The notes below the pieces were generated by a model. That model searched no databases. It saw only the letters and a program-made list of their open reading frames with translations, and was not told the origin of the DNA. The translations under genes were made by a program, and so were the position numbers. This document shows, piece after piece, positions 3,693 to 22,190 of a DNA stretch of 22,190 nt. Position 1 is the first letter of the stretch; each line of letters begins with the position of its first letter. The stretch comes from a virus: IMG/VR virus record IMGVR_UViG_3300006789_000203, positions 1 to 22,190 of that record, one strand, 5' to 3'.

Positions 3693-3719
3693 GAGAAAAC
3701 CATGGGCGGAGTAGTAAGA
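3676..3719 (+). repeat. 44-bp perfect direct repeat, copy 1
   Basis: This segment spans the last codons of the large terminase gene, the AGGAG ribosome site and the first six codons of the next gene (MGGVVR). It is identical to 4019-4062, 343 bases away; the flanking bases differ (T versus G before, T versus G after). Confidence 0.97.
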
Positions 3720-4022
3720 TTAGTCAAAAGCATGAGGCGTGGTAGTACACCTTTACCCGTTATGGATTTTAAAGATAGTGCTGGAGTATCAGCGCCACAA
3801 GATCTACAAGACGCTGGAAGAAGAGGTATGTCTGCAATTGTGACTGGAAAGCCAATTGAAAACGAAGTAGAAGCTCCACCAGAGACTGAAGAGACTTTAC
3901 TTAAAAAGAAAGAGACTTTACTTAAAAAGAAGAAGAAAGGTCGTTACTCAACACTACTGACAGGCGGAAAAGGCGTTACAGGTGGTGTAGATATTGAAAA
4001 GAAATCATTATTAGGTAGTTAA
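3702..4022 (+). CDS. Small basic protein with C-terminal GRY-LLTGG-SLLGS tail, 106 aa (paralogue A)
   Basis: This 106-residue protein begins MGGVVRLVKSMRRGS, has a variable acidic middle, then a Lys-rich duplicated ETLLKKK segment (residues 64-77) and the tail KKKGRYSTLLTGGKG...KKSLLGS. The next gene (100 aa) shares the start and the tail, and a third at 4973 shares the tail, so this is a local paralogous family. Small proteins with a Lys/Arg-rich segment followed by an I/LLTG...LLG tail are common near portal genes of podoviruses; T7 gp7.3 (a small basic tail/ejected protein, also near the portal) is the closest analogue I can suggest, not a demonstrated homologue. AGGAG lies 6 bases before the ATG. 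Likely a virion component; function unproven. Confidence 0.75.
   Translation: MGGVVRLVKSMRRGSTPLPVMDFKDSAGVSAPQDLQDAGRRGMSAIVTGKPIENEVEAPPETEETLLKKKETLLKKKKKGRYSTLLTGGKGVTGGVDIEKKSLLGS
3891..3932 (+). repeat. Internal 21-bp tandem repeat (ETLLKKK x2)
   Basis: Two adjacent 21-base units (3891-3911 and 3912-3932) differ at one base and encode ETLLKKK twice. The neighbouring paralogue has its own version at 4219-4254 with different bases, so the doubling arose in the ancestor or twice. Confidence 0.9.
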
Positions 4023-4062
4023 TATATTTACATAGGAGAAAACCATGGGCGGAGTAGTAAGA
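4019..4062 (+). repeat. 44-bp perfect direct repeat, copy 2
   Basis: This copy is identical to 3676-3719. Its left half carries an untranslated remnant of the large terminase 3' end (AATATATTTACATAG) although no terminase gene precedes it here, which shows it was copied from upstream. Confidence 0.97.
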
Positions 4063-4347
4063 GTTTTCAAAAATCTCGTTGCACCATCGAAAGACCCAGC
4101 AGCGCCATTAGTAAGAGCGTTTGCTGCAAAAAAATCTGGAACAAACATTTTAGAAAAACCAGAAAGCGTTGTTAAAGATGTAATTCCAGATAATGAAGTA
4201 GAAATGCCAGAAGCTACAGAGACTTTATTGAAAAAAGAGACTTTATTGAAAAAAAAGAAAAAAGGTCGTTACGGCACACTACTAACAGGTGGAAAAGGCG
4301 TTTTAGGAAGTCCAGATATTAAAAAGAAATCATTATTAGGTAGTTAA
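4045..4347 (+). CDS. Small basic protein with GRY-LLTGG-SLLGS tail, 100 aa (paralogue A')
   Basis: This is the tandem duplicate of the preceding gene. The first six residues MGGVVR and their upstream 38 bases are identical at the DNA level; the middle has diverged (NLVAPSKDPAAPLVRAFAAKK), while ETLLKKETLLKKKKKGRY.TLLTGGKG and the final KKKSLLGS are kept. The 18-bp unit encoding ETLLKK is perfectly doubled at 4219-4254. The conserved ends and divergent middle suggest that the N-terminal peptide and the C-terminal tail are the functional contacts. Same inferred role as its neighbour (small virion or ejected protein), unproven. AGGAG stands 6 bases before the ATG. Its stop is one base from the next start. 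Confidence 0.75.
   Translation: MGGVVRVFKNLVAPSKDPAAPLVRAFAAKKSGTNILEKPESVVKDVIPDNEVEMPEATETLLKKETLLKKKKKGRYGTLLTGGKGVLGSPDIKKKSLLGS
4219..4254 (+). repeat. Internal 18-bp perfect tandem repeat (ETLLKK x2)
   Basis: The 18-base unit at 4219-4236 is repeated exactly at 4237-4254, encoding ETLLKK twice just before the KKKGRY tail. Confidence 0.9.
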
Positions 4348-4348
4348 T

Positions 4349-4561
4349 ATGGGAAAGAAAAGCGCACCACAGCCTTTTATTCAGCCGATGACATCTGTTC
4401 CAGATGCAGTTGATAGAGAAGAGTTGGATAAAAAGACTACAGAAGATATTGATAAAGCTAAGATAGCTAAAGCATCTACAAAAGATGGCGTTGCAGCGCC
4501 TCAAGCATCACTATTGGCTGAAAGAGAGTTTTGGAAAAAGAAAGAATCACTGCTTAAATGA
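4349..4561 (+). CDS. Small hypothetical protein, 70 aa, related to the tail family but lacking the GRY-LLTGG tail
   Basis: The 70-residue protein begins MGKKSAPQPF, matching the start of the later 77-residue gene (MGKKSAPYVP), and ends FWKKKESLLK, which resembles the E-(T/S)LLK segment that stands just before the KKKGRY tail in the two preceding genes. The tail itself is missing: the stop overlaps the acetyltransferase start as ATGA. It therefore looks like a family member that lost its C-terminus, or a shorter variant. The ATG is one base after the previous stop and has only a weak SD-like AGG, so it probably depends on translational coupling. Function unknown; likely a small virion-associated protein. 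Confidence 0.65.
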   Translation: MGKKSAPQPFIQPMTSVPDAVDREELDKKTTEDIDKAKIAKASTKDGVAAPQASLLAEREFWKKKESLLK

Positions 4562-4980
4562 TCGAAATCAAACCTAATGCGGGGCAAGAAGTCACGGATT
4601 GGGTAGCAGAACGAGTAGATGCTACTACTTTTGGTGATAGTGTCAATTTTGGTTTTTTTGAAGATGACAAATTAGTAGGTGGAGTAGTTTTTAGTGAGTA
4701 CCGTGTAGAGGATATTACATTCTCTGGTGCTTTTGAAGACAAAAGATGTTTCACGAAACGCAATTTGCGCTACTTCTTTGAATATCCTTTCAGACAACTC
4801 AAGTGTCACAGAATTACAGCATATACCGAAACGGACAACAAAAGGGCTAATAAGTTACTTAAAAACCTTGGTTTTACCCTTGAAGGGACTATGCGAGAAA
4901 TATCAGAAAAGGGAAAGGATGCCAACATATATGGTATGCTTGACCGCGAATGTAAATGGTTAGGAGATAACAATGGGTAA
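4558..4980 (+). CDS. GNAT-family N-acetyltransferase
   Basis: GNAT enzymes transfer an acetyl group from acetyl-CoA to an amine. The 140-residue protein shows the family's features: a central beta-rich part (GFFEDDKLVGGVVFSEY), a conserved acceptor strand and a C-terminal signature with ETDNKRANKLLKNLGFTLEGTMRE at about residues 92-115 (N-x-R/A ... LGF..EG..R), typical of the RimJ/RimL-like branch found in phage structural clusters. The substrate is unknown; protein N-termini or lysines of host or virion proteins are possible. The start overlaps the preceding stop (ATGA), and the end overlaps the next start by 8 bases, so it is co-translated with the small tail-family genes. No ribosome site of its own is visible. 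Confidence 0.85.
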   Translation: MIEIKPNAGQEVTDWVAERVDATTFGDSVNFGFFEDDKLVGGVVFSEYRVEDITFSGAFEDKRCFTKRNLRYFFEYPFRQLKCHRITAYTETDNKRANKLLKNLGFTLEGTMREISEKGKDANIYGMLDRECKWLGDNNG

Positions 4981-9379: not shown

Positions 9380-9943
9380 ATGGCAACAGCGGTTTCCATT
9401 TGTTCAAACGCATTAAGAAAACTTGGTGACGATCCGATCACATCCCTAACTGACGATACAGAAAGAGCAAGACTCTGTAACGCTTTCTACGAACCTACAA
9501 GAGATGCTGTATTAAGATCACATCCTTGGAACTTTGCAATAGAAAGACAAGCACTCAGTAAACTTACAACTACTCCAGCATTTGATTATGCTTATGAGTT
9601 TACTCTACCAACCAGTCCTTATTGTCTTCGTGTTCTCAAGATGGAATATGATGATTATGATTTTAAGATTGAAGGTAGAAAATTACTATCAAATGAAGGC
9701 ACTGCAAAGATTCTTTATATTGCACAAGTTACTGATACTGCAAAATTTGACCCAATGTTCACAGAGTTACTTACTGCTAGACTTACAGCAGAATTAGCAT
9801 ACTCTATTACAGGTAGTAATACCTTAACTAAACAGATGTGGGAAATCTATGAGAACAAGGTTTCAGAAGCAAGAAGTATTGATGGTTTAGAAGGATTTAT
9901 AGACGGGATAGTTTCAGACGAATTTACATCATTCAGGGGTTAA
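9380..9943 (+). CDS. Head-to-tail adaptor (T7 gp11-like tail tubular protein A)
   Basis: The adaptor ring docks under the portal and carries the tail nozzle. The 187-residue protein matches the family's N-terminal pattern (SICSNALRKLGDDPITSLTDDTERARLCNAFYEPTRDAVLRSHPWNFA, residues 7-53) and its usual length (about 190). The motif RDAVLRSHPWNFA is particularly typical of podovirus tail tubular A proteins. It starts after the hairpin at 9333-9358 with AGGAG about 7 bases before the ATG, and directly abuts the next tail gene. Confidence 0.88.
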   Translation: MATAVSICSNALRKLGDDPITSLTDDTERARLCNAFYEPTRDAVLRSHPWNFAIERQALSKLTTTPAFDYAYEFTLPTSPYCLRVLKMEYDDYDFKIEGRKLLSNEGTAKILYIAQVTDTAKFDPMFTELLTARLTAELAYSITGSNTLTKQMWEIYENKVSEARSIDGLEGFIDGIVSDEFTSFRG

Positions 9944-11656
9944 ATGGCTAGAGTACATCCATTTCAGTCTAACTTTACTGCTGGGGAGTTAAGTCCTCGC
10001 CTTGAAGGACAAATAGACTTTAAGAAATATTTTAACGGTTGTAGTGAATTAACCAATATGATTGTCTACCCTCATGGAGGGGCAGCTCGTAGAGGAGGCA
10101 CATACTTTGTATCTGAAGTAAAGACTTCTGCTAAGGAAGTAAGGCTTGTTCCTTTTGAATTTAATGTAACTCAATCCTATGTACTAGAGTTTGGTGATAC
10201 TTATATTCGTTTCTATAAGGACAACGGTCAGATTCAATCTGGTGGTTCTGCTTATGAAATATCATCACCATATCTTGAGGCTGAATTACCAGAATTACAT
10301 TTTGCTCAATCAGCTGATGTTATGTATATCTGTCATAGTAATCACGCACCAAGAAAGCTATCAAGAACTGGTCATACATCTTGGACATTAACAACGCCTA
10401 CATTTCAGTGGAAAGCCTCATCTCCTTGGAATAGTAGTAACGGATACCCAAGAACAGTATCATTCTACGAACAAAGGTTGTTCTTCGCTGGCACTTCTGC
10501 AAAGCCTCAGACTATCTGGGGTTCTAAGACAGCTTCATACGAGGATATTCGTACTGGTACTAACGCAGATGATGCACTAGAGTATGCTATTGCCACTAAC
10601 AAGGTAAATGTAATTAGATGGCTACAACCAAGTAGAGACTTAATTGTTGGTACAGGTGGTGGTGAATTTAAAGTAGGTCGCCCAACAGGTGAACCTTTGA
10701 CACCATCTAACGTAATGGTAACTCAACAAACTACATACGGTAGTTGGACTATTCCACCAGTACAAATCGGTAATGCTATTTTATTTACACAGAGAGCAAG
10801 ACGTAAAGTTCGTGAGTTCTCTTACCAGTATCAGAGTGACGGTTATATTGCTCCAGATATGACACTCTTAGCAGAACACATTACAACAGGTTATCTAAAG
10901 GATATGGACTATCAGCAAGAGCCTGATTCTATTGTATGGTCTTGTACTTCAACAGGAAAGCTATTAAGTATGACTTATGAGCGTCCAGAAGATGTTGTTG
11001 CTTGGGCAGAGCATGAAATTGGTGGTACAGATGTTGAAGTTGAAAGTGTTGCAGTAATTACTAATGCTACACAGGATCAATTATGGGTTTCTGTAAAGAG
11101 AACTGTAAATGGCTCAACAGTAAGATATATTGAATATATAGACCCTGAGTTAAATGTAGACTCGGGTATTACTGGTATAGTATCGACTGCTACAACTTCT
11201 GTAAGTGGACTTTCTCATTTAGAAGGGGAAACGGTTAAGATTGTTATAAATGACGCTGTATTCCCAGATGCAACGGTATCAAGTGGCGCTATTTCTATAT
11301 CAGTACCTACAGGCTGGACTAATGTTCCGATTGAAGTAGGGTTAGGCTATACATCTACATTAAAGACTATGCGTGTTGAGGCAGGCTCTCAAGCAGGCAA
11401 GGCACAAGGATTAAAGAAAAGATGGAATGAGGTTAAAGTTAGATTGCTTAATACAACAGGTGTTAAGATTAATGGCGACCAACTTCCTTTTAGAACATCA
11501 TCAACTCCTATGAGTTCAGGTATCGGTTTATTTACAGGTGATAAACGAGTTACTAATCTCGGATGGGATAGAGATGGTATTATTGAAATTAAACAAGAAC
11601 AACCTTTACCATTAACGGTATTAGGTATTCATGGTACATTAACGGTGAGCGATTAA
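9944..11656 (+). CDS. Tail nozzle-like protein (tail tubular protein B position)
   Basis: The 570-residue protein begins ARVHPFQSNFTAGELSPRLEGQIDFKKYFNGCSELTNMIVYPHGGAARRGGT, a start widely shared among podovirus tail proteins (F.aGElSP.l..r.D...Y..G......n.i....G...rR.Gt), as in the epsilon15-like group. The rest is beta-rich with WGSKTASYEDIR and a C-terminal Ser/Thr/Val-rich part. Its place directly after the adaptor gene matches the nozzle/tail tubular B protein that closes the short tail and interacts with the outer membrane. The ATG follows the previous stop directly. The exact homology to T7 gp12 is not shown; the functional role is inferred from order. Confidence 0.75.
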   Translation: MARVHPFQSNFTAGELSPRLEGQIDFKKYFNGCSELTNMIVYPHGGAARRGGTYFVSEVKTSAKEVRLVPFEFNVTQSYVLEFGDTYIRFYKDNGQIQSGGSAYEISSPYLEAELPELHFAQSADVMYICHSNHAPRKLSRTGHTSWTLTTPTFQWKASSPWNSSNGYPRTVSFYEQRLFFAGTSAKPQTIWGSKTASYEDIRTGTNADDALEYAIATNKVNVIRWLQPSRDLIVGTGGGEFKVGRPTGEPLTPSNVMVTQQTTYGSWTIPPVQIGNAILFTQRARRKVREFSYQYQSDGYIAPDMTLLAEHITTGYLKDMDYQQEPDSIVWSCTSTGKLLSMTYERPEDVVAWAEHEIGGTDVEVESVAVITNATQDQLWVSVKRTVNGSTVRYIEYIDPELNVDSGITGIVSTATTSVSGLSHLEGETVKIVINDAVFPDATVSSGAISISVPTGWTNVPIEVGLGYTSTLKTMRVEAGSQAGKAQGLKKRWNEVKVRLLNTTGVKINGDQLPFRTSSTPMSSGIGLFTGDKRVTNLGWDRDGIIEIKQEQPLPLTVLGIHGTLTVSD

Positions 11657-11658
11657 TT

Positions 11659-12081
11659 ATGGCATCAAGTGGAGAATATGCAGGCGGTATAACAGCAATC
11701 GCAGGTGGTGTTATAGCTGCAAGAGGAGCAATGCAAGCTGGTAAAGCTTCTTATGCTGCTGGACAAGTTGAATATCATCAAGAATTAGAAAGAGCGCATT
11801 ACGAAGCTAAAATTCTTCAGCGTCAAATGCTAGAAGCAATGCACATGCAATTCGCACAAGCAGGTGGCGCAGGTGTAGCTGTAGGTGAAGGCTCTCCTAT
11901 GTTAGTTGCTATGCAAACCTTAAATAATTTACAAGAAGATAAAGCACAGATATATAGAACTGGTGCTAAAGATGCTTGGAAGTTCTGGCAAGCTGGAGCA
12001 GATAAATTCTCAGCTGCACAGTCACAAGCAACAGGTTCACTACTTGCTGGTATAGGTAAAGCAGCAAGCATAATGGGATAA
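11659..12081 (+). CDS. Internal virion/ejection protein, T7 gp14-like
   Basis: In T7, gp14 is stored in the capsid core and forms the outer-membrane pore of the DNA ejection channel. This 140-residue protein has the family's look: a Gly/Ala-rich N-terminus (residues 6-30, GGITAIAGGVIAARGAMQAGKASYAAGQ), a central helix with ILQRQMLEAMHMQFAQAGGAGVAVGEGSP, and an Ala/Ser-rich amphipathic C-terminus. It is followed by two larger ejection proteins, the order 14-15-16. The gap to the previous stop is 2 bases; the SD-like GGTGAG is moderate. Confidence 0.75.
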   Translation: MASSGEYAGGITAIAGGVIAARGAMQAGKASYAAGQVEYHQELERAHYEAKILQRQMLEAMHMQFAQAGGAGVAVGEGSPMLVAMQTLNNLQEDKAQIYRTGAKDAWKFWQAGADKFSAAQSQATGSLLAGIGKAASIMG

Positions 12082-12084
12082 CAC

Positions 12085-14103
12085 ATGGCAATTACTATTA
12101 GATCAAGACAAGGAACACAGATAGGCTATAAAGGCACTTCTGGTGGTAGTGTATCGTGGGTTAATCAGGCTGGACAAGCTGGTAGACAAATAACAGCATT
12201 AGGTCATACAATGATTAACGTTGCAGATGATGTTAAGAAATTCTTCAATGATGAAGTAAGTGAATCAGAGATTCGTCAGCAAGTTGATGATATGCAGGTT
12301 GCTTATTTAAAACAATCTCGTGCATGGCATAAAAACCTTCGTGAAGGTGGTTTAGCTAAAGATGCAAACGGTGTACCAACTCAAGAGATAGATCCTAACT
12401 ATTACACAGACATCTCTAATCAGAATCATGATACATTTTGGAAAGATTATGTAGAAGATAAGGGATACGATCCTAAAGCTGTATCAGCATTTGGTGTTTA
12501 TTTCCAGGACAAAGGACAAGAGGCTTTCAACAAGGCTGACCAGTGGGGAATGAAGCAACGCTATTCTAAGCTGAGAGCGAAAGATGCTATTAATATCAAA
12601 GAACACATGATAACAATCACAACTGATCCTTTGGTTGAGAATAAACAGTCTGCTTTTGATGCACTACAGAATATGCACCTATCTGGCGCTCCTCATAGAG
12701 ACGGCAATGAGTGGAAGAAAATCATGGATGACGCTCAAACTGTTTTAGTTGAGGAAATTGCAATCACTAATGCTTATGGACAACAAGGTCGTAACTTAGA
12801 CCCTTCAGATTTAGTGAATGGATATACAGAAGTAGATTACAGTAATGCTATTAAACGTATTAATGCAGACCCAACTTTAACCAAGGATCAGAGAAAAAAA
12901 ATTACTGATGGAATGCGTTCTAATCGTAAGACTCGTATAGCAGTTGAAAAGACGGCTAGAGCTGCTGCAGACAATGCTACTCAATCTGGATTCTCTGCAC
13001 TTCATTCTCAAGGTAAGCTAACACTAGCTATGATTGAAAACTCTAACATTGATTTCGAACAAAAGATGTACTGGAAAAGTCAATTAGAAGGCGGTAGTAA
13101 GAAGCCTTGGAAGGGTGATTACAATACTATTAAAGACACTATCCTTTCTGGAACTTGGTCTGAAGAGAATGATATTGCTCGTACTCCAGAGGACATTAAG
13201 CAAGCGGTAAGAGTAGCAGCCAACGAAAAGAACATCCCAGCTGATGAAGTTGAGAAGTTAATGAAAGACGTAGAGGAGGTTGCTAAAGCAAGCCCTATAA
13301 CTGTAAAGAAGAAAGCTGCTAGAGTCCATGCTAAATCATCATTTACTGGAGATTTATCAACATTTGAAAAGTTAATGCTTGGTCAGAAAGGCAAGAGTGT
13401 TATGGCATCTGAAGCTCAAGAAGCTGCTGAGAATAAGCTGTGGAAGTACGATACCATGATTGAGAAAGAATTAGCAGAAGGTCGTAAAAACGGACTTACT
13501 TGGAACAAGATGCTTTCTCCTAGTAGCCCTGACTACATCGTTAATGATATTATCGACACGATTAACAGCATTGAGCCAAATGTAGTGGAAAAAGTTGATC
13601 CAGTAGAAGAGACAGACCCTACATTAATTGAAAGCGCTATTGACGCTGTATCGGAGTTTGATACTGGTGCAGAAAAAGTATTTGATAAGGTTGTAGACCT
13701 TGTGTCTCCAGATGGTCCAGTAGTAGATAAAAAGGTAGTTGCCCAGCAGGTTGTAGATAGTGGTCAAACAATTCACAAGGTTTACGGTAGAGCATCATAC
13801 TTCCCATTAGGGACTACTCCTGTTCAGGCAAAGGCTCAAACAGATTCAAGCATGGCAGAAATACAAACTGGTGATGCAAGAATGAGAGTTGTGTTTGATA
13901 GTGAACATCCAGGATATTCTCAATACCTTGATGGCAGAGAATCAATGAAAGCGTGGAAAGAACGTATGGCGATTATGGGGTATGATATTACCAGTAAGAT
14001 TCGTCAAGATGGCTACAGATTAGAATTACAAGATGTCGTGCTAACTGACGAAGAAATTGCTGCAGAAATGGAAAGAATTGCTAACGAAATTGAGGCTGAT
14101 TAA
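12085..14103 (+). CDS. Internal virion/ejection protein in the T7 gp15 position
   Basis: The 672-residue, largely helical, charged protein starts MAITIRSRQGTQIGYKG and has long stretches of predicted helix without membrane segments, as expected for a core protein that forms part of the periplasmic tunnel. I cannot identify a catalytic motif in it. Placement between the gp14-like and the giant gp16-position protein supports the call. Residues 505-560 are acidic (VDPVEETDPTLIESAIDAVSEFD). The C-terminus LTDEEIAAEMERIANEIEAD resembles the duplicated ...FT..EI.AE motif at the N-terminus of the next protein. The stop overlaps the next start by one base (TAATG). Confidence 0.65.
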   Translation: MAITIRSRQGTQIGYKGTSGGSVSWVNQAGQAGRQITALGHTMINVADDVKKFFNDEVSESEIRQQVDDMQVAYLKQSRAWHKNLREGGLAKDANGVPTQEIDPNYYTDISNQNHDTFWKDYVEDKGYDPKAVSAFGVYFQDKGQEAFNKADQWGMKQRYSKLRAKDAINIKEHMITITTDPLVENKQSAFDALQNMHLSGAPHRDGNEWKKIMDDAQTVLVEEIAITNAYGQQGRNLDPSDLVNGYTEVDYSNAIKRINADPTLTKDQRKKITDGMRSNRKTRIAVEKTARAAADNATQSGFSALHSQGKLTLAMIENSNIDFEQKMYWKSQLEGGSKKPWKGDYNTIKDTILSGTWSEENDIARTPEDIKQAVRVAANEKNIPADEVEKLMKDVEEVAKASPITVKKKAARVHAKSSFTGDLSTFEKLMLGQKGKSVMASEAQEAAENKLWKYDTMIEKELAEGRKNGLTWNKMLSPSSPDYIVNDIIDTINSIEPNVVEKVDPVEETDPTLIESAIDAVSEFDTGAEKVFDKVVDLVSPDGPVVDKKVVAQQVVDSGQTIHKVYGRASYFPLGTTPVQAKAQTDSSMAEIQTGDARMRVVFDSEHPGYSQYLDGRESMKAWKERMAIMGYDITSKIRQDGYRLELQDVVLTDEEIAAEMERIANEIEAD

Positions 14104-17100
14104 TGACAACACTACAAGATGCTGGGCAATGGGGTTTTACACCTGATGAAATTAATGCAGAAGCGTTAAGAATACAAGATACTGCCAAGCAATGGGGTTT
14201 CACTGATGCAGAGATTGAAGCAGAAGAGGGTATCAAGAACTCTAACTGGGTTCGTACTGTTACTAATGTCAATAAACCAACACTCTCAACAATCACAGAT
14301 AGATTAGATTCTGGCTATAGTCCTTACATAGAGATAGGTGGTCGTAAAGGTAAGTTCAATTTCGATATTCCTAAACGTGAAGACGATAAAACACCAGGAT
14401 TTCAATATCAGTTTGAAGCTAATGATGGTAACAACTACTGGTTTCAATTAGAAAAAGACTATCAAGGTGGGCGTTGGGATGAAGCAGAGCATGCAGAAGC
14501 AAACTACAATGAATACAAGGCATGGGGTGCAGAAACTAGAAAAGAGCTACTAAACCAAATGTGGGCAGGCTCTCCTCAAATTGCAGAGTTTATTGATGAA
14601 TCTGTAAAGAATGATGTTCCATGGGTAAACGTTCAGGCAGGATTAAAACAGTTTAATACTTATCGTCAAATTTCAAACTCTGATACAGTTGGCAAGCCAG
14701 AAGTAGATGAAAACCTAGTGGCAATGATAGAGAATTATAAGTTAATGGAGCTGACCAAAGGCAAGGGTTTTGCTATGATGCCAGAGTTTGAAATACCTGA
14801 GGATGCAAGTGAAGAAACACGCGCCTTCATGGAGAAAATTCTTAAAGTTAAGCAACTTGCTAAAGATGATCCAAAAGGACTATTAACTAAAGAGTGGAAG
14901 TGGGAAGATGTTCCTGGGTATGGTTATGACTCTGCAGTAGTTGGTTTAGCGCATGAATTTCTAAAAATTAGAAACGGTGATGAAGACGCAATACAAAGTG
15001 CAGCTGAAATGATACTAACACTGCAGGCTTACGAAAACCAAGACTGGGGTAAGAAGACTTTATTCCGTATATCTGGTATTGGAAGTGAGCTGCCTATAAT
15101 GATTCCAGCAGGTGCTGCTGGCGCTTGGTTTTGTGGAACAGCTGCTGCACCAGGAGGACCAGCAGTGGCAGGTATTGCAGGAGCAGGTTGTGGCATGGGA
15201 ACAGCATTTGCAGCGCCAGCATTCTTTAGAGACTTGCTTACTAATCTTATGGATGAGGAGATGGGTGTTGTAGACGCTCATGGCGTGTTTGACTTATTAG
15301 CATCTGCTGCTGAAGAAGGTAGTTGGGAATTTCTAATCGGAGCTTTGACAGGCGTTGTTGGTAAAGGTACAGCTATGACCATGGAGACTCTTGGTGTAAC
15401 AAACAAGATTGTAAAAGGTGGTGCAACGCTTACAACTGAAACTACAACAATGGTAGGGGCATCAGGACTTGTGCATGACTACACCCCAACATTGCAAAAC
15501 TTCACAGATACTGCAATCGACCTATTAATTCTTAGAGGTGGTAACAAAGGATTTAAAGAAACCAAAAGCCTAATGAAGCGTAAATACCAAGGTACAGAGT
15601 ATTACGTTCGTAAGAATTTAATGAAGTTATACGCTAAGTCAGGTATCGACCCTAGAGCGGTAAAAGAACATATTAAAAATAATCCAGAGCTTGCTAGAGA
15701 ATTAGTAGAAACATTAGGCAAGAAGAACTTTGTAATGCCAGATTATTACATGCGTCATGTTGCAGAAGTAATGAATCGTCTTGAGCAGGTATCTCGTAGC
15801 ACTATTAAGGTGGGCGAGCAGGATTTCCAAGTATCAAGATACTATGATGCCAAGAATGGTGAGATGGAAGTGATGTCACGTTTTGACGGTGAGTTTAAAG
15901 GCTTGCCAGATAAGATTACTTTCAAATTAACTGAAGATGGTAACTGGACTATTAAGGAAATGGAAGGTGACTTGAGCATTAAAGGTATTCAAGCTATTGC
16001 TGATTTTGCAGAATCTAAAGGTAGACAAATTATTAGAACAGAAGGTTTTGATGAAGTTTACAAAATCATAGAAATGCGTCAGGAGAAAGTTGAAACACTT
16101 GATCCTAGAGATCAAGCTGCAGTAGACCTAATGGAAGGTGTTAAACAGACAGCTGAAGAACTTCGATCCCTTGGTAAAGAAAAAGAAGCTGTTGAAGTAG
16201 AAACAGAAGGTAGAAACCTATTAGAACAGGCAGTGGGTAAAGACTATCTTCAACAAGCTGAAGCAAAAGTAACAGAGTATGAAGCGTTTGCAATAGATAA
16301 AGCAGCGAAAGATGCTGCTAATGCTGAGTATAGAGCAACAGGGTTTTATCCACCAGAAACAGTATTCAAAGATACATTTGGCAAGATAGATAAATTAGAA
16401 ATACCTAAGCATGATATTGAAACACAATTAATTGCAACTCATTCTACAGAGTCAGCAAATATAGCTATTATCGCTGAAAAGGGGTTTGATGTTTCTAAAG
16501 GTAATGGATTCTTACACTTTGGTAATGACGCTCAAGCAAGAGGACGTGCTTCAGGAATGAATGACGCTTCATTTGTTAGAGTTCAAGTTAAGTATAACAA
16601 GCCACTAGATGCCCGTATTTGGGAGAATTTTGATGAGGCTACTGAAGGGTTAGGTACTCCGTTAATGACGGCTACATTCCTTAAAAACTTATCCAGAGAA
16701 TATGAGAACCATCCAGCTAAATTAACTGACGCAGAATTTAATACTATTCGTAATGAGCAAAGTATTCAAGCACAGAGTTTAAAGTTAGCAGAAATTCTAC
16801 AGACTAGAGGTTATGACGCTATTATCTACAAGAATGAAGTAGAGGCTAAAGGCGATTCAGTAGCAATTATGAGTAATGCTAATATGAGACCGTTAGGTTA
16901 TGCCAAGTCTACTACTAAAGGTGAAGCTGAAGCGCTTGGTGCTGATAGAGGAATTATTAAAGGCTTGCCTTTTAGCTTTAAAGAGCAGTTGCAAGACATA
17001 GCAAAAGATGACGGCATTAATTACTATGACTATTCCAATAAAGAAATCATAGCCGAAGCTAAAGAGTTTAAGCTACGTTTTGATGGGAACATTGGTAGGA

Positions 17101-20100
17101 TGGAGCAGGATATGCTCAATGGTGACTTCGGTGCTTCAGATAAAAAACAAGCACAGAAGAGTTACAGAGAGATAAAGAAGTTTTTGAAGAAGTTTGAAGA
17201 AAGTAGTGGCGAGAAGGTTGCTGAAGAGGCGTTCAACTTTACTGGCGCACCAGAAGCTAGAGTAACACCTAAAGGTATGGCTTCAGATGGTGGTTACAAT
17301 CTAAGTTTAATTGAGGGTAGTACACAAGCTAACAAGATTATGACTATGCCAGCATTAGTAGAGATAGTTGATCTATTGATGGATGGCAAACTACCAGGCA
17401 TCTATAAGAATCTAGGTGAAGGTACTCAAGGTTTATTTTCTCATATTCCTGGAAAAGGTAAAGAAACTGGAAAGATTAAACTTCGTGCTGATATATTCAA
17501 AGACCCTAAGATGGCTGCTAAAACTGTAGCTCATGAGATTGGTCACATGGTTGATTGGTTAGAAGGTGCTGAAAACTATACAATGTCAAGAGGTAATATT
17601 CTTGGTCGTTTAGCGAGTTTAAAAAAATACCTTAATACCTACATGGAAGGTAGACCTGGCGGTAAGAAGCCACTGACCCAGAAAGAGAAGAATAAGTTAC
17701 GTTATGAGGCTGAAAAGTTCATTAAGAATGAAGTTAAAGCAATATCTGAAGTTCCTGAAATTAAAGAATTAGGTATTACTCCACAGCAGATAAAAGACAT
17801 TTTTACTGGTGTTATGAAGCGTGCTGATGTAGACCCAAGAATATTCCAGCTTATATCAGATGCAGGTAAAAAACTAAAGAAAGATATTACTAAGACTGCA
17901 ATGCGTGGCAAGATTCATCCAGAGATATTAAAAATTATTAATTCTGGTAAAGAAAAGAAAGCTCCATCAGAAGACATTCGTAAGAGAGTATTAGAGAAAT
18001 ATCATGAGATGTTTGAGAAAGAAGTAACAGCTAGAGAGTTACTAAGTCGTGATGTTGTGATAGAAGAGCTGAAGAAGGTTACTCAAGCATGGCGACCTTT
18101 TGATGAAAACGCTAACCCTAAGTACACTAAGTATCGTCATAATTCAAAAGAACTATATGCGGACTTCTTTAGTGCTTTAATGACTAATCCTCAGTTTGCT
18201 AAACTAACTGCACCAACAGCGTATGAAGGTTTCTTTAATTTCATTAACTCTAAGCCTAAATTCAAACAAGCTTATGATAAGATTCAAGAAGAATTAACTA
18301 ACGGTAAGACACTAGATGCTGCTGAATCTAAACTTAGAAAAGGATTCCAAGAAGGTGAAAAGAAGTTTTTTGATCGTCTTGACCAGAATGAAGCAGTCTT
18401 TAAAGGCAAGGGTAGAGAATTTGCAAAGATTTTATTAGATCAATACTGGTATATTATTTCAGATGTAAAGAACTACAAGTCTAGCAATATTCCAGATTCT
18501 AAAAACCCTATCTTTAAGATTGATGAAATGCGTTACCAAGCATCAGAAGCTGAAGGTTATATGAATGACATGAGTAGTCGTGTTGTTGATAGAATGGAAA
18601 AATCAAACATTTCTCATGATGATATGGGAATATACATGTTCCTAAGACGTGTTGTAAAAGAGCGTGGTGAACTAGCTAACCCAAGAGGATTTGATGAGGC
18701 ATCAGCAGCTAGACGCATGGCTGAAATGGAAGCTAGAAGCCCTATACTGTCAGAATTAGCTAACGAGTATTGGACTATTCGTAAAGAGTGGGTAATTGAT
18801 AGACTAGAACAAACTAACATGTATCCTAAACATCTTATGGATAAGCTGAAAGATAATGATGCGTATGCTAAGTTTGATGTAATTGAGTATATGGATGCAC
18901 ACTTCGGTCCAGGTACTGGTGGTCGTATCTTTGGACAGATTGGTACATTGAAAGATATTGCTAATCCTTTCACTACAACAATGCTTAATGACATGATGCT
19001 AATGAGAGCAGCTAGTCAGAACATTGCATTACATACTACGATTGATTTTTACAGAACTGCTAATAAGACTGATCCACAAGTATTTGCTTTTGAGCCTGCT
19101 AAGAAACGTTTCACAGGTAAGTTTAACGAGTTCATAGAGTCTACTAATCCAGACTTAAAGCTGGTAAGAGTTCTAAGAAACGGAAAGATGGAAGGTTATT
19201 ACTTGGATAAGTATGTAGCTGAGGCATTTGAAAGAAACCCATTAGATGGTAATGCAGTAATTAATGCTACAAGAACATTTAATAACGCTATTAGAACGGT
19301 ATTAACAGATATTAATCCAGGTTTCTGGATGGTGAATATGGTTCGTGACTACAATCGTACTGTTAAAAACTTGCCAGCAACAGGTTCAGATAAAGTTATT
19401 CCTTACAAGCAGTTCTTACAATATTTCAAATACTGGAAGCAAGGTTTTAAGCCAGCATTACGAAGTGTTTACGGCATTCCTGATTCTATCATCAAGGAAA
19501 TGTATAAGAATAATGAGTTAATCTCTATTGAAGAAAGAGGTAATGACTTTAAAGCTGATACTGAAGCAGAGCGTTTATTAAAGCGTCATCATCAGAAGCC
19601 TCATGTATGGAAAAAAGAAATTACAATGCCTCTCAAGTGGTTGTATCGTCATATGACAAACATGGGTCAAGCTATTGAAAGACAAAACAAAGTAGCTGCT
19701 CACTTGTATATTAAAGAGAAATTCCCAGATATGTCACCTGAAATGCAAGGACACATGATCCGTGTACAAGCAGGTTCTCCAGCATTCTTGAGAAAAGGTA
19801 CTGGCAACCCAGTAGTTAATAATATATTCATGTTCTCTAATGCTATGAAAGAGGGTTGGCGTGGTGACTTAGAGGTAATGAAAGACAGACCTGCTGAATA
19901 CATGTACAAGACAATTCAGGCTAATATTATCCCTAAGATGTTAATGCATGGCATGGCTGTTGGAATGTTTGGTGATGAAACTAAAACAATCATGGACGGT
20001 ATATCTGAGTACGATAAGATGAATTACATCATTATTCCTATTGGGTTAGGTGAGAATGGTGAGTCTATCTACTTCAGAATACCTCAAGATGAGACTGGAC

Positions 20101-20816
20101 GTGTATTTAGCGGTGTAGCTTGGAAGATATTTGGACAAGGTAAAGAGCAAGATATTAGGTCTGTAATTGACTATACAGCTGGACAACTACCTACATTATC
20201 ACCAGTATTAACCTCTATAAGCGCTATGAAAGACTATATGTCAGGGCAAATGCCTTATGATAACTTTAGACAACGTTCTGCTATCAATCAAACTACATGG
20301 GATGCAGGATTCCCAGAACGTGACAAGGCTATGACTGGTTATATGTGGAATACTATGGGTGGTGGCATCTATAAGAGATACGACACACAAAACCTGGAAA
20401 AGATTAAAACTGATCTTGAAGAGTTACTTCACTTCCCTATCTTGGAGAATACTATAGGTAGGTTCTTAAAAGTATCTGACTATGGTATTAGACAAGAACT
20501 GACTAATGCAGCAGAAGGTGTTAAGCAAGAGTCTGCACAGCAAACACTAGCAGCCAACCATGCCATCAACCAAATTGCACTTGATCCAAGCTATCAGATG
20601 ACTGATGATGAGATTATGGCACTAGCTGCAAAGAGCAATAGCTTAGATAAAAAAGCTCAAAGAATCTTTGCTAATATATATGGTAACGTATTTGTACAAG
20701 AGCTAATGAAAGCACCATCAATTAAAGCAAGAGAGGCAATGTTTGAAAGAGTGAGAGAATTAGCTAAAGAGGGTAATTTACAAGCTCAGGAATATTTAGG
20801 TATCACAGATGAATAA
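14103..20816 (+). CDS. Giant ejected polyvalent protein with ART-like and metallopeptidase domains, 2237 aa
   Basis: This protein occupies the gp16 place of the ejection proteins and is the largest gene. Visible parts: a duplicated motif A.QWGFT..EI.AE at residues 7-20 and 28-41; a Gly/Ala-rich hydrophobic stretch at about 327-380 that could enter a membrane; an ADP-ribosyltransferase-like segment at about 775-930 with HST (H780), FLHFG and GYDAIIYKNEVEAKGDS (903-919, E914 the likely catalytic Glu); a zinc peptidase motif HEIGH at 1144-1148 with ELYADFF (E1350) as probable third ligand; and a long C-terminal part with NPGFW..NMVRDYN (about 1738-1750), resembling the large domains of phage 'polyvalent proteins'. 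I see no lytic transglycosylase motif. It is probably ejected with the DNA and may modify or cut host proteins. Domain identities are by eye. Confidence 0.8.
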   Translation: MTTLQDAGQWGFTPDEINAEALRIQDTAKQWGFTDAEIEAEEGIKNSNWVRTVTNVNKPTLSTITDRLDSGYSPYIEIGGRKGKFNFDIPKREDDKTPGFQYQFEANDGNNYWFQLEKDYQGGRWDEAEHAEANYNEYKAWGAETRKELLNQMWAGSPQIAEFIDESVKNDVPWVNVQAGLKQFNTYRQISNSDTVGKPEVDENLVAMIENYKLMELTKGKGFAMMPEFEIPEDASEETRAFMEKILKVKQLAKDDPKGLLTKEWKWEDVPGYGYDSAVVGLAHEFLKIRNGDEDAIQSAAEMILTLQAYENQDWGKKTLFRISGIGSELPIMIPAGAAGAWFCGTAAAPGGPAVAGIAGAGCGMGTAFAAPAFFRDLLTNLMDEEMGVVDAHGVFDLLASAAEEGSWEFLIGALTGVVGKGTAMTMETLGVTNKIVKGGATLTTETTTMVGASGLVHDYTPTLQNFTDTAIDLLILRGGNKGFKETKSLMKRKYQGTEYYVRKNLMKLYAKSGIDPRAVKEHIKNNPELARELVETLGKKNFVMPDYYMRHVAEVMNRLEQVSRSTIKVGEQDFQVSRYYDAKNGEMEVMSRFDGEFKGLPDKITFKLTEDGNWTIKEMEGDLSIKGIQAIADFAESKGRQIIRTEGFDEVYKIIEMRQEKVETLDPRDQAAVDLMEGVKQTAEELRSLGKEKEAVEVETEGRNLLEQAVGKDYLQQAEAKVTEYEAFAIDKAAKDAANAEYRATGFYPPETVFKDTFGKIDKLEIPKHDIETQLIATHSTESANIAIIAEKGFDVSKGNGFLHFGNDAQARGRASGMNDASFVRVQVKYNKPLDARIWENFDEATEGLGTPLMTATFLKNLSREYENHPAKLTDAEFNTIRNEQSIQAQSLKLAEILQTRGYDAIIYKNEVEAKGDSVAIMSNANMRPLGYAKSTTKGEAEALGADRGIIKGLPFSFKEQLQDIAKDDGINYYDYSNKEIIAEAKEFKLRFDGNIGRMEQDMLNGDFGASDKKQAQKSYREIKKFLKKFEESSGEKVAEEAFNFTGAPEARVTPKGMASDGGYNLSLIEGSTQANKIMTMPALVEIVDLLMDGKLPGIYKNLGEGTQGLFSHIPGKGKETGKIKLRADIFKDPKMAAKTVAHEIGHMVDWLEGAENYTMSRGNILGRLASLKKYLNTYMEGRPGGKKPLTQKEKNKLRYEAEKFIKNEVKAISEVPEIKELGITPQQIKDIFTGVMKRADVDPRIFQLISDAGKKLKKDITKTAMRGKIHPEILKIINSGKEKKAPSEDIRKRVLEKYHEMFEKEVTARELLSRDVVIEELKKVTQAWRPFDENANPKYTKYRHNSKELYADFFSALMTNPQFAKLTAPTAYEGFFNFINSKPKFKQAYDKIQEELTNGKTLDAAESKLRKGFQEGEKKFFDRLDQNEAVFKGKGREFAKILLDQYWYIISDVKNYKSSNIPDSKNPIFKIDEMRYQASEAEGYMNDMSSRVVDRMEKSNISHDDMGIYMFLRRVVKERGELANPRGFDEASAARRMAEMEARSPILSELANEYWTIRKEWVIDRLEQTNMYPKHLMDKLKDNDAYAKFDVIEYMDAHFGPGTGGRIFGQIGTLKDIANPFTTTMLNDMMLMRAASQNIALHTTIDFYRTANKTDPQVFAFEPAKKRFTGKFNEFIESTNPDLKLVRVLRNGKMEGYYLDKYVAEAFERNPLDGNAVINATRTFNNAIRTVLTDINPGFWMVNMVRDYNRTVKNLPATGSDKVIPYKQFLQYFKYWKQGFKPALRSVYGIPDSIIKEMYKNNELISIEERGNDFKADTEAERLLKRHHQKPHVWKKEITMPLKWLYRHMTNMGQAIERQNKVAAHLYIKEKFPDMSPEMQGHMIRVQAGSPAFLRKGTGNPVVNNIFMFSNAMKEGWRGDLEVMKDRPAEYMYKTIQANIIPKMLMHGMAVGMFGDETKTIMDGISEYDKMNYIIIPIGLGENGESIYFRIPQDETGRVFSGVAWKIFGQGKEQDIRSVIDYTAGQLPTLSPVLTSISAMKDYMSGQMPYDNFRQRSAINQTTWDAGFPERDKAMTGYMWNTMGGGIYKRYDTQNLEKIKTDLEELLHFPILENTIGRFLKVSDYGIRQELTNAAEGVKQESAQQTLAANHAINQIALDPSYQMTDDEIMALAAKSNSLDKKAQRIFANIYGNVFVQELMKAPSIKAREAMFERVRELAKEGNLQAQEYLGITDE

Positions 20817-20849: not shown

Positions 20850-22190
20850 ATGGCAGTATCAAGCACAACAAGTAAAGTAAGTTATACAGCATCAGCATCA
20901 CAGACCGTATTTGCGTACACATTTAAGATATTCGCAGATGCAGATTTAAAGGTTTATGTTAATGATGTACTTAAAACACTAACAACAGACTACACAGTAT
21001 CTGATGCAGGGGAAACTGCAGGCGGTAATGTTACCTTTGGAACAGGATTATCAGCTTCCGATTCAGTAGTAATTGAAAGAGTCTTAACCCTTACCCAAGG
21101 AACGGACTATGTAGAGAACGATCCTTTCCCAGCAGAAACTCACGAAGATGCACTAGATAGATTAACTTTTATCACACAACAACATCAAGATGCTTTAGAT
21201 AGAACAGTTAAATTTGCTACTACGGTAACAGATGTAGGTGATGTAGAGGTATTAGGTTCAGCTACAGCTAGAGCAAGTAAATTATTTGCATTTGATTCTT
21301 CTGGTGGCTTAGACATTACTCAAGAAATCGGAGTTTACAAAGGTGGATGGGCTGCAACTACTGCTTATGTTGTTCGAGATATTGTTAAAGATACTGGTAA
21401 TAATAATATTTATATTTGTAATACCGTTCATACTGCTAGTGGTGCTTTACCAATTTCTAGTAATGCTGATTCAGCCAAATGGGATCTAATTGTAGACGCA
21501 GCAGCAGCAGCAACCTCTGCTACCGCAGCAGCGACTTCAGCTACGGCAGCTGCAAGTTCTGCCACAGCAGCAGCTAGTTCAGCTTCAGCAGCAGCTACTT
21601 CTAAAACTGGAGCAGATGCTGCTCAGACAGCAGCTGAGACTGCTCAGACAGCAGCTGAAACAGCAGAAACTAATGCAGAAACTGCTGAAACTAACGCTGA
21701 AACAGCAGAGACTAACGCAGAGACAGCAGAGACTAACGCAGCGTCTAGTGCAACAGCAGCAGCTTCTAGTGCTACCTCTGCTTCAACAAGTGCATCAACT
21801 GCTACGACAAAAGCAACAGCAGCAGCTTCTAGTGCGACAGCGGCTGCAAGTTCCGCAACGGCAGCTGCGACATCAGCCACTAACGCTGCGACATCAGCCA
21901 CGACTGCATCCACTCAAGCAACAAATGCTGCTACTTCAGCAACAACTGCTACGACTCAAGCTTCTACTGCTACTACTCAAGCAACAGCAGCAGCAGCGAG
22001 TGCAACAGCAGCAGCAGCTTCAGCAGATGCGTTTGATGATGTCTATCTAGGAGCTAAGGCTTCTGATCCAACATTAGATAATGATGGTGATGCTCTGACA
22101 GCAGGAGATATGTACTTTAATACAGGTACAGATAGAATGAGAGTTTATTCTGGAAGTGCTTGGGCAGATGTTGCTTTAGATAGTGCAACA
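20850..22190 (+). CDS. Tail fibre protein, 5' part (447 codons, truncated by window edge)
   Basis: The frame is open from ATG 20850 to the last base. Residues 1-130 (MAVSSTTSKVSYTASASQTVFAY..., VYVNDVLKTLTTDYTVSDAG, ERVLTLTQGTDYVENDPFPAE, LDRLTFITQQHQDALDRTVK) match the N-terminal adaptor domain of T7 gp17-type fibres, which binds the tail. Residues 131-215 include GVYKGGWAATTAYVVRDIV, a small carbohydrate-module-like segment. Residues 217-392 are almost pure Ala/Ser/Thr with a heptad-repeat core (258-299), a trimeric shaft. Residues 393-447 (DAFDDVYLGAKASDP..., AGDMYFNTGTDRMRVYSGSAWAD) are typical of the transition to the receptor-binding part, which lies outside the window. SD AGAGG. Confidence 0.88.
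   Translation, partial: MAVSSTTSKVSYTASASQTVFAYTFKIFADADLKVYVNDVLKTLTTDYTVSDAGETAGGNVTFGTGLSASDSVVIERVLTLTQGTDYVENDPFPAETHEDALDRLTFITQQHQDALDRTVKFATTVTDVGDVEVLGSATARASKLFAFDSSGGLDITQEIGVYKGGWAATTAYVVRDIVKDTGNNNIYICNTVHTASGALPISSNADSAKWDLIVDAAAAATSATAAATSATAAASSATAAASSASAAATSKTGADAAQTAAETAQTAAETAETNAETAETNAETAETNAETAETNAASSATAAASSATSASTSASTATTKATAAASSATAAASSATAAATSATNAATSATTASTQATNAATSATTATTQASTATTQATAAAASATAAAASADAFDDVYLGAKASDPTLDNDGDALTAGDMYFNTGTDRMRVYSGSAWADVALDSAT
21621..21746 (+). repeat. Six 21-bp heptad-coding tandem repeats in the tail fibre
   Basis: Six consecutive 21-base units encode AQTAAET, AQTAAET, AETNAET, AETNAET, AETNAET and AETNAAS. The amino-acid unit is exactly seven residues, the coiled-coil period, while codon choice varies between units (GCA/GCT, GAA/GAG, AAC/AAT), so the repeat is maintained for the protein and is not a fresh DNA duplication. 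Confidence 0.9.

What the first reader, a model, noticed from the sequence alone, without database searches (positions are those of the whole stretch)
14103..20816. Giant ejection protein combining an ART-like domain, a zinc metallopeptidase motif and a possible membrane segment
The gene sits in the gp16 (ejected core protein) place, but in place of a visible lytic transglycosylase the 2237-residue product carries H780/GYDAIIYKNEVEAKGDS (ART-like, 775-930), HEIGH (1144-1148) with a downstream ELYADFF (E1350), in the spacing style of gluzincins of the anthrax-lethal-factor type, and a C-terminal region like the large domains described for phage polyvalent proteins (Iyer, Aravind and colleagues, 2017). 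An ejected effector that both ADP-ribosylates and cleaves host proteins at the moment of DNA entry would be a front-line counter-defence or take-over tool. The motifs are seen; the functions and delivery are inference.
Basis: partly seen in the sequence, partly recalled or inferred. Interest (0 to 1): 0.72.

Follow-up and report, generated by a model that had tools for sequence, protein, structure and literature searches.

The report
Podovirus ejection protein carrying ART cargo
A short-tailed phage encodes one huge protein, probably injected with its DNA, that joins a predicted ADP-ribosyltransferase to a predicted zinc peptidase and a conserved delivery-type C-terminus; it is a well-supported new member of a class described in 2017 (phage polyvalent proteins), not a new kind of thing.

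Summary
The 2237-aa ORF (14103-20816) lies in the T7 gp16 place and is a phage polyvalent protein (Iyer et al. 2017). The ART domain (774-935) is supported by ART-PolyVal homology in a close relative and by a model matching NatT, AcrIF11 and PARPs. The zincin motif HEIGHxxD plus E1350 is nearly invariant in 51 homologues. The C-terminal ~850 aa matches LPD38 polyvalent proteins over its full length. No lytic transglycosylase was detected, though the sister clade (Pelagibacter phage Baldr) seems to keep one. Corrections: the ART's strand-5 acid is probably D918, not E914, and the peptidase fits the phage polyvalent MPTases rather than lethal factor. New detail: peptidase plus LPD38-type part form a constant C-terminal chassis under variable N-terminal cargo; the ART-peptidase linker is a slot holding unrelated inserts in relatives, and in the pair L016/L018 an ART cassette is swapped between conserved flanks. 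Best model: a packaged, ejected protein whose peptidase probably releases cargo and whose ART modifies a host target. No activity, target or virion proteomics is known for this phage.

The parts
14103..20816 (+). gp16-position polyvalent (ejection) protein, 2237 aa; its start overlaps the stop of the gp15-like gene (TAATG)
15090..15227 (+). uncharged Gly/Ala-rich segment, residues 330-375, possible membrane-active element
   Evidence: 46 residues without D/E/K/R; comparable segments in close relatives, Baldr and several members of the sister clade
16422..16907 (+). ART domain, residues 774-935; H780 (16440-16442), H805 (16515-16517), D918 (16854-16856)
16908..17237 (+). variable cargo slot, about residues 936-1045: only a 26-residue linker in L004/L006, unrelated inserts in the window, L002 and L003
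17340..18197 (+). zincin-like metallopeptidase domain, residues 1080-1365; H1114 (17442-17444), HEIGH (17532-17546), D1151 (17553-17555), E1350 (18150-18152)
18255..20813 (+). LPD38-type helical C-terminal region, residues 1385-2237; PF18857 match around residues 1966-2058 (19998-20276)
12085..14103 (+). gp15-like gene, 672 aa, by position only
11659..12081 (+). gp14-like gene, 140 aa, by position only
9380..11656 (+). tail tubular proteins A (9380-9943, phrog_394) and B (9944-11656, phrog_376)
20850..22190 (+). tail fibre gene (runs off the window)

Best explanation
The gene encodes a phage-type polyvalent protein in the gp16 slot of a T7-like virion module. Its C-terminal half (zincin MPTase plus an LPD38-type helical region, about residues 1080-2237) is a constant chassis that most likely gets the protein packaged in the head and ejected with the DNA (inferred). 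The N-terminal half has a Gly/Ala-rich segment that may act at the membrane (inferred) and, as cargo, an ADP-ribosyltransferase (fold and homology shown) that probably modifies a host protein or consumes NAD early in infection (inferred). The MPTase most likely cuts the polypeptide itself to free the cargo, in the capsid or in the cell (inferred, following Iyer et al. 2017); cleavage of host proteins is a lesser possibility. The cargo region is exchanged by recombination around the conserved chassis (shown by comparison of relatives).
For: Position after gp11/gp12-like genes and before the tail fibre, same order in Pelagibacter phage Baldr. Full-length fold match of the C-terminus to viral proteins including ones named LPD38 or large polyvalent protein, best E 8e-43, plus PF18857 at E 1.3e-4 in the near-identical G005 gene. 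ART: PF18760 in L006 (E 9.4e-5 in that record; 0.012 library-wide), reciprocal HMM hits with PF18760-positive relatives, Foldseek prob 1.00 to NatT and 0.97 to AcrIF11, tankyrase 2 Z 9.0 over 119 residues. MPTase residues nearly invariant in 51 homologues. dN/dS 0.07-0.24 over ART, MPTase and C-terminus. Constant C-side: 1110 +/- 88 aa from the HExxH to the end against 1169 +/- 457 before it in 35 complete homologues. Cassette exchange: L016/L018 and the linker slot. The window's ART clade is one group on the chassis tree, and ART needs at least 3 changes over the whole tree. A giant LT+LPD3+LPD38 protein, JC1 gp69, is in purified virions with 51 unique peptides (PMC9144972).
Against: No virion proteomics, enzyme assay or target for this phage or a close relative. 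The window protein itself passes no Pfam cut-off; the PF18857 and close-relative PF18760 matches are below curated scores, and PF18818 (MPTase-PolyVal) passes in none of 48 records. The strand-2 Tyr of the H-Y-D pattern is His here, so catalysis could be weak or altered. Self-processing was not tested; N4 vRNAP, which has an MPTase domain, is packaged unprocessed (PMC5512222).
Confidence: 0.75

Rival explanations
1. Dual host-directed effector: the ART ADP-ribosylates and the MPTase cleaves host proteins (for example defence proteins) right after entry.
For: The ART is related by fold to the anti-CRISPR protein 6kyf (AcrIF11, known as an ADP-ribosyltransferase from general knowledge); both catalytic centres are conserved under purifying selection; Iyer et al. 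allow MPTases to act as effectors.
Against: The MPTase is part of the constant chassis shared by phages with quite different cargo, which fits a general processing role better than a host-specific target; no defence-related family was matched.
Confidence: 0.2
2. Purely structural gp16-type core protein; the ART and MPTase folds are kept as structural elements with little or no catalysis.
For: gp16 position; ART strand-2 Tyr replaced by His; the ART is absent from the sister clade, so it is not needed for ejection as such.
Against: Catalytic residues H780, D918, HExxH, D1151 and E1350 are kept over large divergence; ART cargo turns up in separate places on the tree.
Confidence: 0.15
3. NAD-degrading (NADase) rather than target-modifying ART, by analogy with NatT, the top Foldseek match.
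For: NatT chains 8qnq and 8qnl rank 1-2, prob 1.00.
Against: Foldseek E-values are only 0.008-0.01; VIA-align ranks PARP-type ARTs first; a fold does not tell the acceptor.
Confidence: 0.2

Closest known systems
Phage-type polyvalent proteins with zincin MPTase, ART and LPD domains (Iyer et al. 2017, PMC5512222)
   Same: Giant multidomain protein in a virion gene cluster; ART plus MPTase with H at the end of strand 2 and D three after HExxH; LPD38-type C-terminus
   Different: Too diverged for Pfam cut-offs; ART has His instead of the strand-2 Tyr; gp16 place of a T7-like virion module without a detectable transglycosylase
Pelagibacter phage EXVC032P Baldr gene 020 (WDQ27601.1)
   Same: Same gene order, similar length (2329 aa), Gly/Ala-rich segment, HELGH and ELMAEF motifs; 28% identity over 1084-2138
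   Different: Has an N-terminal SLT-like ESDN...GLFQ motif and no ART
Burkholderia phage JC1 gp69 (DarB-like, LT + LPD3 + LPD38), found in virions (PMC9144972)
   Same: Giant podovirus protein ending in LPD38
   Different: Larger (over 4400 aa), helicase- and methylase-like cargo, lytic transglycosylase present
N4 virion RNA polymerase gp50
   Same: Packaged giant protein with an MPTase domain (PMC5512222); best, though weak, VIA match of the C-terminal model (Z 4.8, 190 aa)
   Different: Cargo is an RNA polymerase; the structural match is too weak to prove kinship
T7 gp16
   Same: Gene position and expected role as ejected core protein
   Different: T7 gp16 is smaller and has an N-terminal transglycosylase (general knowledge); no sequence or fold match to it was obtained here
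AcrIF11 (6kyf) and NatT (8qnq)
   Same: ART fold
   Different: Small stand-alone proteins; sequence identity 11-13%

Membership tests
Phage polyvalent protein (LPD38 class) | LPD38-type C-terminal domain | tested here: met
   Full-length fold match to viral proteins, several named LPD38 or large polyvalent protein; PF18857 E 1.3e-4 but 16.4 bits, below the 27-bit cut-off
Phage polyvalent protein (LPD38 class) | Several unrelated enzymatic domains in one large protein in a virion gene cluster | tested here: met
   ART and zincin-like domains in one ORF next to tail genes
Phage polyvalent protein (LPD38 class) | Packaged in the virion and delivered to the host | not testable with these tools
   Virion presence is shown by MS only for an LPD38 protein of another phage, JC1 gp69 (PMC9144972)
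ART-PolyVal / Tox-ART-HYD2 | Sequence homology to PF18760 | tested here: met
   Significant in relative L006, E 9.4e-5 in that record, though below cut-off; reciprocal HMM hits; the window protein alone gives none
ART-PolyVal / Tox-ART-HYD2 | ART fold | tested here: met
ART-PolyVal / Tox-ART-HYD2 | H (strand 1), Y (strand 2), D (strand 5) | tested here: inconclusive
   H780 and D918 9/9; the strand-2 position is H805, not Y; PF18760-positive L058 also has H there
Phage-type polyvalent MPTase (zincin) | HExxH plus downstream Glu on a second helix | tested here: met
   51/51 and 50/51; E1350 lies in a helix of the model
Phage-type polyvalent MPTase (zincin) | His at the end of strand 2 and Asp three residues after HExxH | tested here: met
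   H1114 follows strand 1110-1113; D1151 47/51. H1114 is kept in the close clade but not throughout the wider family
Phage-type polyvalent MPTase (zincin) | Match to Pfam PF18818 | tested here: inconclusive
   None over cut-off; one of 48 records at E 0.0026
Anthrax-lethal-factor-type gluzincin | Specific relationship to that family beyond the zincin motif | tested here: inconclusive
   The profile's weak PDB matches are other zincins at the HExxH helix; the fold of the MPTase alone was not searched; Iyer et al. report no specific kinship of these clades to other zincins
T7 gp16 ejection protein | Position after gp14/gp15-like genes and before the fibre | tested here: met
T7 gp16 ejection protein | N-terminal lytic transglycosylase | tested here: not met
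   No SLT match in the contig of the near-identical phage, in this protein or in the gp15-like protein

The most novel reading that the evidence does not exclude
The MPTase plus LPD38-type C-terminus is a general delivery-and-release chassis of podovirus-like phages, with defined cargo slots upstream into which unrelated enzymes are exchanged by recombination, so that ejection proteins diversify like polymorphic toxins, and the peptidase frees the cargo by cutting at the slot linkers.
Probability: 0.35. Interest if true: 0.65.

Novelty: new member of a known kind. Interest (0 to 1): 0.45.

Why it matters
It ties the polyvalent-protein class to the gp16 ejection slot of uncultivated relatives of a pelagiphage, gives a concrete ART with named catalytic residues that can be tested, and offers paired relatives (slot empty or filled, ART in or out) as natural experiments on what injected proteins do at the moment of DNA entry. 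The class and the general idea were published in 2017.

Tried and rejected
Pfam, PHROGs and PADLOC on the protein alone gave nothing significant. A second ART module in L002, which I suspected from a YHAT motif, is not supported by HMMs. Foldseek of the C-terminus against PDB gave no credible match, and sequence searches of PDB neither. Prophage homologues: first genome scan none, second one weak MAG hit (L068). The inserts of the window and of L002, and the window's ART, have no tblastn match in 50,697 phage records. My first thought that D919 is the strand-5 acid (notebook) was an off-by-one; the residue is D918. HExxH conservation is partly ascertained, since one search pattern contained HE[IL]G; H1148, D1151 and E1350 were in no pattern of that scan.

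Full report
Observation. The ORF 14103-20816 encodes 2237 aa and starts inside the stop codon of the preceding gene, TAATG. Chance alone gives an HExxH in 3.7% of shuffled versions of the protein and HExxHxxD in 0.15%, so conservation is what matters.

Context. The window is a 22-kb virus record with terminase, portal, scaffold-like, major capsid, tail tubular A and B genes and a tail fibre. The finding lies where T7 keeps gp16. The closest isolate is Pelagibacter phage EXVC032P Baldr, with the same gene order and a 2329-aa protein, 28% identical over 1084-2138. A near-identical 33.8-kb contig (L001/G005) adds a Sak/YqaJ recombination pair, a helicase and a primase; no RNA polymerase was seen among the ORFs scanned upstream.

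Relatives. One near-identical and five close loci and 56 loci with the peptidase region were collected. H1144, E1145 and H1148 are invariant in 51 aligned proteins, D1151 is kept in 47 and E1350 in 50. The exception at E1350, L040, has stop codons within the matched region. Purifying selection is clear: dN/dS is 0.10-0.24 in the ART, 0.07-0.10 in the peptidase and 0.07-0.08 in the C-terminus.

ART. A close relative, L006, matches PF18760 over this region, and profiles of the window-type ART and of PF18760-positive relatives find each other. The model of residues 745-1425 has block pLDDT of 82-97 over the ART. Foldseek gives NatT, AcrIF11, PARPs and Tpt1; VIA-align gives tankyrase 2 at Z 9.0, rmsd 3.3, 119 residues. 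Polyvalent ARTs have H in strand 1, Y in strand 2 and D in strand 5 (PMC5512222). Here H780 and D918 are kept 9/9, the strand-2 place is H805, and E914 is K in L012. D918 is the first residue of strand 5 of the model.

Peptidase. The model shows three short strands, then the HExxH helix, with H1114 right after the second strand and E1350 in a later helix. This is the layout that Iyer et al. give for the phage-type polyvalent MPTases, with D three residues after HExxH. A profile search of PDB gives mainly zincins at the HExxH helix, at weak E-values.

C-terminus. The model of 1385-2237 (mean pLDDT 78, pTM 0.73) matches, over its length, proteins of many phages, several of them named LPD38 or large polyvalent protein, with E down to 8e-43 and TM up to 0.76. 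PF18857 matches around residues 1966-2058 in the near-identical gene at E 1.3e-4, below its cut-off. PDB has no credible match; the best VIA row is N4 virion RNA polymerase at Z 4.8, which by itself proves nothing.

Delivery. Phage JC1 gp69, a giant protein with an N-terminal lytic transglycosylase, LPD3 and a C-terminal LPD38, was found in CsCl-purified virions with 51 unique peptides (PMC9144972). That is the best experimental support for the class being virion proteins. It is not evidence for this phage.

Chassis and cargo. In 35 complete homologues the stretch from the HExxH to the end is 1110 +/- 88 aa, while the stretch before it is 1169 +/- 457 (557-2957). The window's N-terminal half is shared only with its own clade, L002-L006 and L011-L014. 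Pfam sees ART, SLT, Radical SAM, RadC and Zeta toxin in single members of a set of 22. On the chassis tree the window's ART clade is one group (support 99) next to the clade with Baldr and other SLT-like members, and ART needs at least three changes over the tree. L016 and L018 are mostly 75-97% identical on both sides of a replaced stretch in which only L018 has a PF18760 ART. In the window's clade the ART-peptidase linker is 26 residues in L004 and L006 but is filled with unrelated inserts of about 100, 140 and 180 residues in the window, L003 and L002; the L002 insert has a VTPKG-type linker on both sides.

Mechanism. Shown: domain make-up, conservation, exchange of cargo. Inferred from the class: packaging, ejection, self-processing by the MPTase, host modification by the ART. 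The absence of a transglycosylase means that peptidoglycan is crossed by some other protein, or that the domain is too diverged to see.

Verdict. A known class with an informative member; good for direct tests, not a new system.

Noticed in passing
window 3702-4022 and 4045-4347: Two tandem paralogous small genes of unknown function sharing a KKKKKGRYxTLLTGGKG motif; upstream 54 nt 94% identical, 120 nt of the 3' part 86% identical.
   Followed up: partly
window 4558-4980: GNAT-type acetyltransferase (phrog_4470) between terminase and portal; Baldr has a putative acetyltransferase at the same place.
   Followed up: no
L016 residues 824-1342 (4691 start) and L018 residues 815-1167 (5204 start): Clean cassette replacement in otherwise similar giant proteins; only L018 carries an ART.
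   Followed up: yes
22 homologues of alignment A4 (L011 to L058): Other homologues carry Radical SAM, RadC, Zeta toxin, DUF3990 or ParB-like domains on the same chassis; which member carries which was not resolved.
   Followed up: no
L049, L057, L059: Giant homologues with extra HExxH motifs, possibly several peptidase domains.
   Followed up: no
L068 753-1331: Only cellular-genome hit: a Lentisphaeria MAG contig with a 25% identical peptidase region.
   Followed up: no
L007 (OQ414636.1): The Baldr record carries locus tags named EXVC031PHodr, so its tags may have been mixed up with another phage.
   Followed up: no
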